Source of the DNA: Salinivibrio kushneri | GTDB lineage: Bacteria > Pseudomonadota > Gammaproteobacteria > Enterobacterales > Vibrionaceae | Length of the DNA: 64,000 nucleotides | Assembly: GCF_027286325.1 (NCBI RefSeq) | Contig: NZ_CP114588.1 | Coordinates: 62,001 to 126,000 of the forward strand | Reading direction: 5' to 3' | In this document: positions 8,091 through 12,097 of the stretch, in pieces | Layout: every line of letters starts with the position of its first letter | How positions within the stretch are numbered: the first letter of the stretch is position 1 | The notes under the pieces: generated by a model | The model's input: only the letters and a program-made list of their open reading frames with translations | What the model was told of the DNA's origin: nothing | Database searches by the model: none | Position numbers and translations under genes: made by a program

Positions 8091-9275
8091 GTGACTGAGT
8101 ATGATGTAATTGTGATTGGCGCCGGTGCGGCAGGATTGATGTGTGCGGCACAAGCCGGCCAACGTGGCCGCCGCGTTTTGGTGGTGGATCATGCCAAAAA
8201 GCCGGGCCGCAAGATCCTGATCTCGGGCGGCGGACGCTGCAATTTCACCAACTATGACGTCACCGCCAATAACTTCCTGTGTGAAAACCCGCACTTCGTC
8301 AAATCCGCATTGGCGCAATACAGCCAATGGGACTTTATTGGTCTGGTGGCCACCCATGGCGTGGCCTATCACGAGCGTGACCACGGCCAGCTATTTTGTG
8401 ATGACAGCGCTAAAGATATCGTTAACCTGCTGTTGGCTGAATGCGACCAAGCCACCATCAGTCAACGCTATCGCTGTGAAGTGCATGATATCGTGCAAGA
8501 AGAAACCGGCTTTCGCCTTAAACTCAATGGTGAGCCGGTACGCTGCCAGTCGTTGGTGGTCGCCACAGGCGGCCTTTCGATGCCCAAGCTTGGCGCCACC
8601 CCCTTTGGTTACCAACTTGCCGAGCAATTTGGCCTAAAAGTGCTGCCCACTCGCGCCGCCTTGGTGCCGTATACCTTGCACCAAGAAGACAAAACGCGCT
8701 TTGCCGATATTTCCGGGGTGTCGGTGCCATGTTCGATCACCACTGAGTCTGGGGTGTGCTTTACCGAGAATCTGCTCTTTACCCACCGCGGCTTATCGGG
8801 ACCAGCGGTATTGCAAACCTCCTCGTTTTGGCAGCCGGGTGAAGCGGTCACCATCGATTTACTCCCCAGTGAGTCGCTAAAAGACGTGCTGGTGGCGATG
8901 CGTGATAAGCATCCCAACCAAACCTTAAAAACCTCACTGTCTCGCCTATTCCCCAAACGCTTGGTCGAGGTCTTGATTGCGCGCGATAGCTTGCCAGATA
9001 AACCGCTCAAACAGCTCGATGACAAGCAGCTCGATCAACTTCATCACTACTTTCACCAGTGGTCTATTGCCCCAAACGGCACTGAAGGTTACCGCACCGC
9101 AGAAGTGACGCTTGGTGGGGTAGATACCCACGCAATTTCCTCGAAAACCCTTGAAGCGCGAGATATTCCCGGCCTGTATTTTATCGGTGAAGTGCTAGAT
9201 GTCACCGGCTGGCTCGGCGGCTATAACTTCCAATGGGCTTGGAGCTCCGGCTGGGTAGCTGGGCAGCATGTATAA
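8091..9275 (+). CDS. yhiN: YhiN/HI0933-family FAD-dependent oxidoreductase
   Basis: Predicted flavoprotein of 394 aa starting at a GTG at 8091. It shows the FAD dinucleotide-binding loop GAGAAGLMCAAQAG near residue 10, then GGGRCNFTN, which marks the HI0933/BaiN family, and a C-terminal FAD-contact stretch (IPGLYFIGEVLDVTGWLGGYNFQWAWSSG). The reaction in this subgroup is unknown; gut relatives called BaiN act on bile acids, but that should not be transferred here. In E. coli yhiN also lies near pitA-uspB-uspA, so the neighbourhood is conserved. Confidence 0.92.
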   Translation: MTEYDVIVIGAGAAGLMCAAQAGQRGRRVLVVDHAKKPGRKILISGGGRCNFTNYDVTANNFLCENPHFVKSALAQYSQWDFIGLVATHGVAYHERDHGQLFCDDSAKDIVNLLLAECDQATISQRYRCEVHDIVQEETGFRLKLNGEPVRCQSLVVATGGLSMPKLGATPFGYQLAEQFGLKVLPTRAALVPYTLHQEDKTRFADISGVSVPCSITTESGVCFTENLLFTHRGLSGPAVLQTSSFWQPGEAVTIDLLPSESLKDVLVAMRDKHPNQTLKTSLSRLFPKRLVEVLIARDSLPDKPLKQLDDKQLDQLHHYFHQWSIAPNGTEGYRTAEVTLGGVDTHAISSKTLEARDIPGLYFIGEVLDVTGWLGGYNFQWAWSSGWVAGQHV

Positions 9276-9857
9276 ATGTGCTGTGACAATAAGGTTTTCC
9301 TGAAAAAGTCGTGTGTTCTATTTTTCGAGAAAAGCTTAAAAAATACATTCAGTACTTCTATGAGCGACACTGCATATATCGCAGCCATTAGCTATGTGTC
9401 GCTGATATTTTTTGAAAAACAACGAAATAAATGCAAGACGTGTCTGTTTAAAAATTAGATTAACACCAAAAGGTGCGAGTTAGATAATGCTTGTTATGTA
9501 ATTAATAATAATGTCGATGGAAAAATCGCAAACATATTCCAAGTTTACTGTATGTGGAGTGAAATTCGCATGCAACCCTTTAGTATGTCAATGAAATACA
9601 TAACACATCTCCGTTTAAGTTGATAGAAAATATGTTTTTTATTTCGTTAAACTGTATTCATATAGCGCGACCCGTCTAAACCATCACTACACACTAAACC
9701 TGAAGAGAGGATTTCTTTATTTTAACGGTTGAGCCTGGCGTAATGCTAAATAACTTCAGGTGTTTTATTTTTACATTTAATGAATAAGAAAGATTTTCAT
9801 ATAAAATATCTACTCACCCTATAAAGTATGCGCTGACATAGTATTTAAGGATGAAGC
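9276..9857. other. AT-rich gap of 582 bases without a convincing gene
   Basis: The base composition drops sharply from the GC-richer yhiN. A 60-codon frame at 9276-9458 has no Shine-Dalgarno, begins at the yhiN stop and looks like no known protein, so I leave it out. An 8-bp inverted repeat (AGCGACAC 9363-9370, GTGTCGCT 9396-9403) with a 25-base spacer is visible. The last part presumably carries the promoter of the two accessory genes that follow. I see no terminator for yhiN and no mobile-element ends. Confidence 0.6.
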
Positions 9858-10682
9858 ATGAATAAAAACGTTATTTTTATAGCGGTTAGTTTAAGTATCC
9901 CGCTGGTAGCACATGCGATGGAGCCATGGAATAAAGATACTGTTTACAATTCGGGTGACCTAGTCACTCACCATGGAGAGTCATTTGTATCTTCTCATTG
10001 GACACAAGGAACTGAGCCAGTAGTAAATGATATCTCTTGGGATGGTTGGATTCACATCAATGCATATACGATTGACAACTATGAGCATGAAACACCTTAT
10101 GCAGGTGGTTCAGTCGTGAACTTTGAAGGAGATATTTACCTAGCTAAATGGTGGGTTCAAGGAGAGTACCCTTCTAAGTCTGGCACTTGGCGTTTACTCG
10201 ATGATTTAGAACCATCTCCAGACCCAGACCCAGACCCAGACCCAGACCCAGATTTAGACCCTAAATCCCCTGAGGCAATTGTGGGAGTGGATAAAGATAA
10301 CAATGGAGTTCGCGATAGTTACGAAGTGGCTGTAACAGAGGCGTATCAAAACCCCCAAATTGTTCAGCTGGCCATTAACCTCGGTCTTGAGTATACCGAT
10401 ATCAATGAAATTGCGTTTGATAAATCCATCCAGCTGTCAGTTGAGGATGCGACTAAAAAGTACAACGAAATTTTGGTTTTGGAAGAGTGTGCAGAGGAGT
10501 TGCTGAAAACAGGTGTTGTTGAAATGACGCCACTAGAGCTGCATACCGATACCTTGTACAGAGCGTTAACCTACCGAAATGGAAAAGAGCGTATTTTCGA
10601 GCAGATGGAGCACGATCTTGATGCGGTTTTGACGATTGATCAACCGTGTGTAGGGACAATGGCAGAGGAGGCGGTTAAATGA
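9858..10682 (+). CDS. Secreted protein with two chitin-binding-like modules and a calcium-loop helical domain
   Basis: A 274-aa protein of a kind I cannot name. Residues 1-20 are a Sec signal ending AHA. Two tandem modules of about 45 aa follow (about 21-67 and 72-114). Each has the CBM5/12-like pattern of an aromatic start, VY..GDLV or GGSVV, F(V/I)...WWxQG.P and a closing W. A (PD)6 linker at residues 121-132 leads to a C-terminal domain of about 140 aa. That domain opens with a DxDNNGxxDxxE calcium loop (DKDNNGVRDSYE) and continues as amphipathic helices with two cysteines. The stop overlaps the start of the next gene by 4 bp (ATGA), implying translational coupling. Composition is AT-richer than the flanks. 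Chitin binding is inferred from the module pattern only. Confidence 0.8.
   Translation: MNKNVIFIAVSLSIPLVAHAMEPWNKDTVYNSGDLVTHHGESFVSSHWTQGTEPVVNDISWDGWIHINAYTIDNYEHETPYAGGSVVNFEGDIYLAKWWVQGEYPSKSGTWRLLDDLEPSPDPDPDPDPDPDLDPKSPEAIVGVDKDNNGVRDSYEVAVTEAYQNPQIVQLAINLGLEYTDINEIAFDKSIQLSVEDATKKYNEILVLEECAEELLKTGVVEMTPLELHTDTLYRALTYRNGKERIFEQMEHDLDAVLTIDQPCVGTMAEEAVK
10218..10253 (+). repeat. CCAGAC hexamer array encoding a (PD)6 linker
   Basis: Six in-frame copies of CCAGAY (five CCAGAC, one CCAGAT) code for alternating Pro-Asp between the binding modules and the C-terminal domain. Such hexamers can gain or lose units without breaking the frame. Confidence 0.95.
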
Positions 10683-11761
10683 AAAAGCTCGCGACTATTC
10701 TTGGTTTGATGTCACTATTTTATGCTAGTACGAGTGCGGCTCAGTGTGAAGTTAACGTTGATAAACTCCAACTTGTCTACATCAACGGAATGTTTACTTC
10801 TTCAGAAGCGGCTAAGCAAAACGTGAATGCTTTGAATCGATTCCAAGACAAATATCTTTATACTTTTGAAAAGGCATCGGGCGTCGAATATTCCTATAAC
10901 TACTCGGAGACACTTTTGTTGCAAATAGCTGAGGTTGCTTTTCATAAAATGACCGATGAGCAATATGAAGCTGGCTACGGGAGATTCTTGAATCGACTTG
11001 TTAGCGGTAAGGATGTTTCGGTTTTGGAAGATGCTGCCGAGATGCTAGCTTGGTTCTACAGTACCGTCATTGAAAAAGTTGATTCATTAATGCAAGAGTA
11101 TGACTACACTGCGGCTGAAAGGGTCGTGGAGAGCCAAGTTGGAAAGTGTGCTAGAACAGTATTAGTTACTCATTCACAAGGTAACTTCTATGGGAATGCG
11201 GTTTATACGAGTGTGTCCTACTCCTATGTCTATCCCAATCAAGCTGCACTGTCGGATTATCCTATGCTCGGTTATATGGGTATAGCTAATCCAACTTATA
11301 GTGTTGGGGGCTATTACGGGCAGCAGGTGCCAGAAATTGCCAAAACGTTCACTAATGCGAATGACTTGATTATGTTGGCAGTACGTTTAGCATACGGCGC
11401 AGTTCCTTCAGATTCGGTATATGCGAATCTACTATCTGATCCTACTGGGCATGGCCTAGAAGTTGCGTATCTTAAGAACCGCGGCGCGCCTGTTATCGCT
11501 CAGCGAATTATCGATACAGTTAATGGCTTGACGCCATATCCTATGTTTGAGCAACACCGAGTATCGTCTTCGGCCATTTCTAATATTGGCTACTCAGAGA
11601 TCTCACACATGTTGGATGTGCGTTTTAAATATGGTGGTGGCTACCGTTACTATGATGTCCCAGGACACATTGGGAACACTTTTATCAATGCATCGAGTCA
11701 TGGCACTTATTTTAATGAATTCATTAAAGACCAGTATGCTTATGAAAAAATAGAAGGTTAG
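10679..11761 (+). CDS. Secreted alpha/beta hydrolase with a C-terminal KTSC domain
   Basis: A 360-aa protein with a Sec signal (cleavage near STSAA-Q). The middle looks like a lipase-type alpha/beta hydrolase: a strand with YINGMFT near residue 34 as a possible oxyanion loop, a nucleophile elbow THSQGN with Ser166, and plausible acid and base at Asp229 (NANDLIML) and His258 (TGHGLEV). The last 65 or so residues match the KTSC domain pattern (ISNIGY...LDVRFKYGGGYRYYDVP...F..ASSHGTYFNEFIKDQY). KTSC domains are widespread, short and of unknown function. The start overlaps the stop of the preceding gene by 4 bp, so the two products are probably made together and exported together. The substrate is unknown; the triad assignment is by eye. 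Confidence 0.82.
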   Translation: MKKLATILGLMSLFYASTSAAQCEVNVDKLQLVYINGMFTSSEAAKQNVNALNRFQDKYLYTFEKASGVEYSYNYSETLLLQIAEVAFHKMTDEQYEAGYGRFLNRLVSGKDVSVLEDAAEMLAWFYSTVIEKVDSLMQEYDYTAAERVVESQVGKCARTVLVTHSQGNFYGNAVYTSVSYSYVYPNQAALSDYPMLGYMGIANPTYSVGGYYGQQVPEIAKTFTNANDLIMLAVRLAYGAVPSDSVYANLLSDPTGHGLEVAYLKNRGAPVIAQRIIDTVNGLTPYPMFEQHRVSSSAISNIGYSEISHMLDVRFKYGGGYRYYDVPGHIGNTFINASSHGTYFNEFIKDQYAYEKIEG

Positions 11762-12097
11762 GAGTAGGTTTCACTACGGAAACCTACAGAGGTGTTTACT
11801 TGCTTTTGTGTTGTTTGCAATAAACGGCATACCATAAGCGATGGTTGGTTTATGTGATCTTTATTCTAAATATTCTCTAGTTGACTGTTTTTTGTCTAAA
11901 AAATGGCAATCTTTGTTGCGCGCTGTTACATTAGCGCGCGCTTGCCATGTCGGATAAAAATTATCCGGCGCTGTGAACCCGCGACGCGCAGGATGGGCTC
12001 GCGGTACCCTAGGGACGGGGTGACGGCTGTTCACTATTGCTACCTCGGTTATCGGGGAGTTTGGAATTAACCTGTCGTTGCTTTGAGAGCCGTTCCC
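11762..12097. other. 336-base gap with inverted repeats; structured leader of the chemoreceptor gene
   Basis: The left part is AT-rich like the accessory genes; from about 11918 it becomes GC-rich. Visible inverted repeats are ATGGCAA (11903) with TTGCCAT (11942) enclosing GCGCGCT/AGCGCGC, then CGGATAA-AAA-TTATCCG (11951-11967), CCGCGA/TCGCGG (11979-12004) and CCCTAGGG (12007-12014). No T-run follows any of them. I compared the region with the GEMM-I cyclic-di-GMP riboswitch and could not match its conserved core. Confidence 0.45.

What the first reader, a model, noticed from the sequence alone, without database searches (positions are those of the whole stretch)
9858..11761. Coupled pair of secreted proteins: chitin-binding-like partner and KTSC-tailed hydrolase
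Two genes overlapping by ATGA both have Sec signals. The first has two CBM5/12-like modules, a (PD)6 linker and a calcium-loop helical domain. The second joins a serine hydrolase core (Ser166 in THSQGN, likely Asp229 and His258) to a KTSC domain. I know no described system with this make-up. A chitin-anchored esterase with a dedicated binding or folding partner is one reading; the helical C-terminal domain could be the contact surface.
Basis: partly seen in the sequence, partly recalled or inferred. Interest (0 to 1): 0.72.

Follow-up and report, generated by a model that had tools for sequence, protein, structure and literature searches.

The report
Secreted hydrolase with an obligate partner
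Two overlapping genes make an exported enzyme (a lipase-like serine hydrolase) and a dedicated exported partner; the enzyme occurs in many bacterial groups, is never found without the partner, and neither the pair nor its two core domains has a name yet.

Summary
Gene A (9858-10682) has two CBM5/12 modules, a (PD)6 linker and a helical domain with an EF-hand-like loop. Gene B (10679-11761) has a Ser-Asp-His hydrolase core and a KTSC tail. They overlap by ATGA and sit in a 2.58-kb insertion that three same-genus genomes lack. The reading needs revision. The conserved unit is A's C-terminal domain plus B's core; neither matches Pfam, and A's domain has no solved relative. Chitin-binding modules and KTSC are lineage-specific additions. 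Of 80 related loci from many phyla, 78 have A directly upstream of or fused to B; the other two begin at contig ends. A and B are fused into one protein in four lineages. In 328 Vibrionaceae genomes B occurs in 47, all of which have A, while A occurs in 99. B decays while A stays intact, and A forms arrays of diverged copies beside one B. I therefore favour A as a cognate exported binder that restrains B (immunity- or prodomain-like). A foldase/anchoring subunit, like the Lif-lipase pair, is the close rival, and the fusions favour it. Substrate and direct A-B contact are untested.

The parts
9272..11852 (.). Insertion carrying the pair; G+C about 0.42 against about 0.53 in the flanks
   Evidence: Three same-genus genomes join window bases 9271 and 11853 directly; composition
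9469..9701 (+). Scar of a deleted third gene: upstream region and first ~95 bases of a secreted endonuclease/exonuclease/phosphatase-family gene that is intact in L016 and L017
   Evidence: 74% identical to L016, then a jump of about 1.1 kb; Pfam of the intact gene
9858..10682 (+). Gene A, exported partner protein, 274 aa
9858..9917 (+). Likely Sec signal peptide of A
   Evidence: read from sequence
9918..10064 (+). CBM5/12 module 1
   Evidence: Pfam PF02839; aligned modules
10068..10199 (+). CBM5/12 module 2 (AKWWVQG motif)
   Evidence: Pfam PF02839; PDB sequence match to chitinase CBM
10218..10253 (+). (PD)6 linker
   Evidence: sequence; longer in the near-identical L016 copy
10257..10679 (+). 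Conserved A domain (helical, two conserved Cys), the part shared by the whole family
   Evidence: alignments A2 and A7; no Pfam or PDB match
10290..10316 (+). EF-hand-like loop D-K-D-N-N-G-V-R-D
   Evidence: near-invariant positions in 45 sequences
10679..11761 (+). Gene B, exported serine hydrolase with KTSC tail, 360 aa
10679..10741 (+). Likely Sec signal peptide of B
   Evidence: read from sequence
10784..10792 (+). N36-G37-M38, likely oxyanion-hole segment
   Evidence: conserved in 63 sequences; role inferred
11168..11185 (+). Nucleophile elbow THSQGN, Ser166
   Evidence: invariant, strand-turn-helix in model
11363..11365 (+). Asp229, catalytic acid (inferred)
   Evidence: invariant
11450..11452 (+). 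His258, catalytic base (inferred)
   Evidence: invariant
11564..11737 (+). KTSC domain
   Evidence: Pfam PF13619; Foldseek 7x8c and 4rgi, E about 1e-6

Best explanation
A and B are a two-component exported module. B is a Sec-exported serine hydrolase, probably lipase/esterase-like. A is its cognate exported binder: the helical domain of A grips B's hydrolase core and restrains it in or near the producing cell, in the manner of an immunity protein or a prodomain working in trans. A's N-terminal modules decide where this happens (outer-membrane lipoprotein, membrane helix, or, in the window, CBM5/12 modules that can bind chitin-like glycans). Shown: both proteins, their domains, obligate linkage of B to A, natural A-B fusions, loss of B with retention of A, arrays of diverged A copies. 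Inferred: direct contact, restraint of B, lipase/esterase activity, harm by free B.
For: A lies directly upstream of or fused to B in 78 of 80 loci; the other two begin at contig ends. In 328 Vibrionaceae genomes all 47 with B have A, while 52 have A without B; 14 shared genomes would be expected if independent. Loss is one-sided: among 60 A loci 23 lack B and 11 keep only B fragments beside an intact A; six of the loci found through B show the same, and only one (L087) has a broken A beside an intact B. A forms arrays of diverged copies beside one B: five in L168, whose alleles differ most in the C-terminal half (70-79% nucleotide identity) while the spacers are 91-99% identical. A-B fusions that lose B's signal peptide arose in four lineages, and the fusion model has pTM 0.81, which suggests packed domains. 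Catalytic residues are invariant.
Against: Fusions are hard to square with a permanent inhibitor unless it is released or cleaved. The 60 A loci were taken from the best A hits, which favours intact A. B is longer than A, so it breaks more often by chance. No toxicity or inhibition was tested. Solitary A could serve another protein. B's variable part is its C-terminus, unlike classical polymorphic toxins. The interface could not be inspected, as no coordinates or PAE were given.
Confidence: 0.42

Rival explanations
1. [quoted passage not shown]
For: Same layout as Lif (envelope anchor, low-complexity linker, helical domain) in many relatives (PMC7046727). Dedicated chaperones beside type II substrates are a known class, and lipB can lie upstream of lipA (PMC4713064). 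Four fusions keep A's lipobox or N-terminus and drop B's signal peptide. A type II secretin gene is present in the genome.
Against: Many genomes keep A without any B and arrays collect diverged A copies beside one B, which a chaperone does not need. No lipase-chaperone family appears among the Pfam matches. The window's A has a CBM pair in place of a membrane anchor.
Confidence: 0.35
2. One reading: a chitin-anchored esterase; A's CBMs deliver B to chitin, where B removes esters from chitin-bound material.
For: CBM5/12 above the Pfam cut-off; CBM on A occurs only with KTSC on B, in loci from marine gammaproteobacteria and one MAG assigned to Desulfuromonadales.
Against: CBMs were gained once, late, and are absent from most of the family; nothing ties the enzyme to chitin. 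It may describe where this subgroup acts, not what the pair is.
Confidence: 0.13
3. A and B are linked only because a mobile cassette carries them together and do not interact.
For: The locus moves: exact insertion, 99% identical B in another genus next to a transposase, plasmid copies.
Against: Linkage of the same two domains with the same order across phyla, four fusions and one-sided loss are not expected. The third gene of the cassette, by contrast, is lost freely.
Confidence: 0.05

Closest known systems
Lipase-specific foldase Lif with lipase LipA/LipB (Pseudomonas, Burkholderia, Acinetobacter)
   Same: Adjacent genes; exported serine hydrolase plus dedicated envelope partner with anchor, linker and helical domain
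   Different: No sequence match to Lif; A is much shorter, has an EF-hand-like loop and a likely disulfide, always lies upstream, often occurs alone or in arrays, and is sometimes fused to B
CpaB-CpaA protease/chaperone pair of Acinetobacter (PMC4713064)
   Same: Membrane-anchored dedicated partner beside a type II substrate
   Different: Different client (metallopeptidase), different domain, partner downstream
Phospholipase effectors with lipoprotein or periplasmic immunity proteins (Tle-Tli of type VI secretion; from memory)
   Same: Lipase-like hydrolase with cognate exported partner; orphan and tandem partner genes
   Different: B has its own Sec signal and no type VI adaptor; A-B fusions occur
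KTSC domain proteins (PF13619; 7x8c, 4rgi)
   Same: B's tail has this fold and sequence
   Different: Here the KTSC domain is an addition to an exported hydrolase in one clade
CBM5/12 chitin-binding modules
   Same: Two modules in A, second with AKWW motif
   Different: No chitinase attached; serve a non-enzymatic partner

Membership tests
CBM5/12 (PF02839) | Profile match above the curated cut-off | tested here: met
   43.4 bits against 26.2, two stretches
CBM5/12 (PF02839) | Binds chitin | not testable with these tools
   needs a pull-down
KTSC (PF13619) | Profile match and fold | tested here: met
   63 bits against 25; Foldseek E about 1e-6 to 7x8c and 4rgi
Alpha/beta hydrolase superfamily | Ser-Asp-His in order, Ser in a strand-turn-helix elbow | tested here: met
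   invariant in 63 sequences; secondary structure of the model
Alpha/beta hydrolase superfamily | Fold match to solved members | tested here: inconclusive
   For B the best non-KTSC hits are cutinases, E 0.02, target TM 0.36-0.49; the fusion's core hits are mostly lipases/esterases, E 0.03 or worse
Lipase-specific foldase (Lif) | Sequence family membership of A | tested here: not met
   no lipase-chaperone family among Pfam matches of window A or those listed for 45 A domains; no PDB sequence match
Lipase-specific foldase (Lif) | Needed for the hydrolase to fold | not testable with these tools
   needs expression with and without A
Effector-immunity pair | Hydrolase never without the partner; partner often alone or in arrays | tested here: met
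Effector-immunity pair | Hydrolase harmful, partner protects | not testable with these tools
   needs expression tests
Known anti-phage defence genes | PADLOC model match | tested here: not met
   no hit for A or B

The most novel reading that the evidence does not exclude
A new cross-phylum class of Sec-exported hydrolase effectors whose cognate antidote, a previously undescribed calcium-loop helical domain, works either in trans as an anchored protein or in cis as a fused prodomain, and spreads as an immunity gene of its own.
Probability: 0.33. Interest if true: 0.78.

Novelty: new variant of a known kind. Interest (0 to 1): 0.62.

Why it matters
It joins two unnamed domains into one obligate unit found from Vibrionaceae and Deltaproteobacteria to Deinococcus and candidate-phyla (CPR) bacteria, on chromosomes and plasmids, where genes are now annotated 'hypothetical'. 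It makes a clear question testable: does A restrain B or build it? Either answer gives a new dedicated-partner family for secreted hydrolases, and natural fusions provide a ready single-chain version for structural work.

Tried and rejected
Chitin anchoring as the main function: rejected as the core reading because the CBMs are a late addition. Phage gene: no full-length relative in annotated phages and a single viral contig carrying the CBM/KTSC type. Known defence gene: no PADLOC match. A known fold for A: no Pfam, PDB-sequence or Foldseek match. RNA element in the island: no Rfam hit. A hidden remnant of the third gene at protein level: none; found only as a DNA scar. Paper searches for the KTSC domain, the bare motif HSQGN and a KTSC/chitin/lipase-chaperone combination found nothing on this pair. 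Co-divergence of A and B over 106 pairs (Spearman 0.54) was not used as evidence of contact, because linked genes co-diverge anyway. Positive selection in the array: not supported (dN/dS 0.14-0.41 for the distinct copies); the diversity looks like recombined old alleles.

Full report
Observation. Two ORFs at 9858-10682 and 10679-11761 overlap by ATGA. A has two CBM5/12 stretches above the Pfam cut-off; B has a KTSC domain; neither the helical part of A nor the core of B matches Pfam or NCBIfam. The AlphaFold2 model of B is good (pLDDT 85.6, pTM 0.85), with Ser166, Asp229 and His258 at the places expected of an alpha/beta hydrolase. Foldseek finds KTSC structures for the tail and only weak cutinase/lipase-like matches for the core. 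The triad distance itself was not measured, because coordinates are not exposed.

Setting. The pair lies in an A+T-rich stretch. Three same-genus genomes join window bases 9271 and 11853 directly, so the insertion is 9272-11852. In three others the flanking flavoprotein gene is followed by unrelated DNA, so the site looks like an insertion hotspot. B is 99% identical in a genome of another genus, where a transposase lies beside it. That copy has a third gene upstream, a secreted endonuclease/exonuclease/phosphatase-family protein, intact in L016 and L017, broken in L019, L020 and L023, and reduced in the window to a scar at 9469-9701.

Family. A profile of B cores was used for one scan of 84,980 species genomes. 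Of 80 loci, 78 have an A domain directly upstream on the same strand or fused to B; the other two begin at contig ends. Record titles include Vibrio, Pseudoalteromonas, Shewanella, Ferrimonas, Endozoicomonas, Zetaproteobacteria, Desulfuromonadales, Thiotrichales, Bdellovibrionota, SAR324, Fibrobacteres and candidate-phyla (CPR) bacteria; many are MAGs, so single assignments may be wrong. Plasmids of Aeromonas and Comamonas carry the pair, and B homologues lie on Cupriavidus plasmids; nearly all are annotated as hypothetical proteins. A's conserved part is about 130 residues with G-x-D-x-D-x-[DN]-G-x-R-D-D and two cysteines. What precedes it varies: lipobox, membrane helix, HYR repeats, or two CBM5/12 modules. 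B's tail varies too: KTSC, DUF2135-like, propellers and others. All loci with CBM on A have KTSC on B, and on the tree CBM was gained once and KTSC once or twice.

Fusions. In L047 (SAR324), L083 and L105 (sulfur-oxidizer relatives) and L218 (Deinococcus aetherius plasmid) A and B are one protein, with A first and B's signal peptide gone. Four changes are needed on the tree. A model of the L047 fusion, with A and B relatives supplied as unpaired rows, has pLDDT 84.4 and pTM 0.81. That value suggests a defined domain arrangement, but no PAE was available. The fused model's core again resembles lipases and esterases weakly; the A domain has no match.

One-sidedness. In 328 Vibrionaceae genomes A occurs in 99 and B, intact or broken, in 47, all among the 99; 14 shared genomes would be expected if independent. 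Among 60 A loci, 26 have an intact B, 11 keep only B fragments, and 23 have none. In the two B-derived sets six loci have a broken B with intact A and one (L087) a broken A with intact B. The A loci were the best-scoring hits, which favours intact A, and B is longer, so the counts overstate the bias somewhat; the genome-level test is free of the first problem. Extra A copies occur beside B (L055, L063, L092, L095, L169). L168 has five A genes before one B. Its spacers are 91-99% identical while the C-terminal halves of the A genes are only 70-79% identical at DNA level, and each of the first four copies is followed by the first nine bases of B's coding sequence and then unrelated spacer. This looks like stored, diverged A alleles.

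Mechanism. B's dependence on A, the fusions and the common layout show a functional unit. The one-sided loss and the A arrays fit an antidote or inhibitor better than a chaperone. The fusions fit a foldase, prodomain or anchor better than a plain immunity protein. A prodomain-like binder, which can both shape and restrain its enzyme, as subtilisin prodomains do (general knowledge), would reconcile both, and I give the restraint reading a small lead (0.42 against 0.35). In the window the CBMs may place the complex on chitin or a similar glycan. A type II secretin gene is present in the genome, so export across the outer membrane is possible. Substrate is unknown.

Comparison. Lif and CpaB are dedicated, membrane-anchored partners of type II substrates (PMC4713064; PMC7046727). 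A works possibly like them but is not a Lif by sequence.

Noticed in passing
window 9469-9701; L016 9174-10274; L017 4817-6142: A third gene of the cassette, a secreted EEP-family nuclease/phosphatase, is intact in two relatives, decayed in others and reduced to a DNA scar in the window.
   Followed up: partly
window 9271/11853; L206, L210: The site between the flavoprotein and chemotaxis-receptor genes is empty in three relatives and holds other DNA in three; by eye L206 has a restriction-enzyme-like protein and L210 an ABC-transporter-like protein.
   Followed up: partly
L168 2381-6145: Five tandem A genes before one B; spacers nearly identical, C-terminal halves of the A genes strongly diverged; a nine-base stub of B's coding sequence follows each of the first four copies.
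   Followed up: yes
L063, L092, L055, L095: Extra A copies flank a single B in Pseudoalteromonas, Ferrimonas and Zetaproteobacteria.
   Followed up: partly
L097, L106, L086 and other CPR loci: CPR members pair a membrane-anchored A with a very large B (about 700-1360 aa) with Ig-like and other repeat-rich tails and a shorter hydrolase core.
   Followed up: no
L057: A pair in a MAG labelled Candidatus Pacearchaeota, an archaeon; may be misbinned.
   Followed up: no
window 11900-12083: Hairpin-rich leader (GCGCGCTGTTACATTAGCGCGC) before the chemotaxis receptor gene, also present in L205; no Rfam hit at the gathering score.
   Followed up: no
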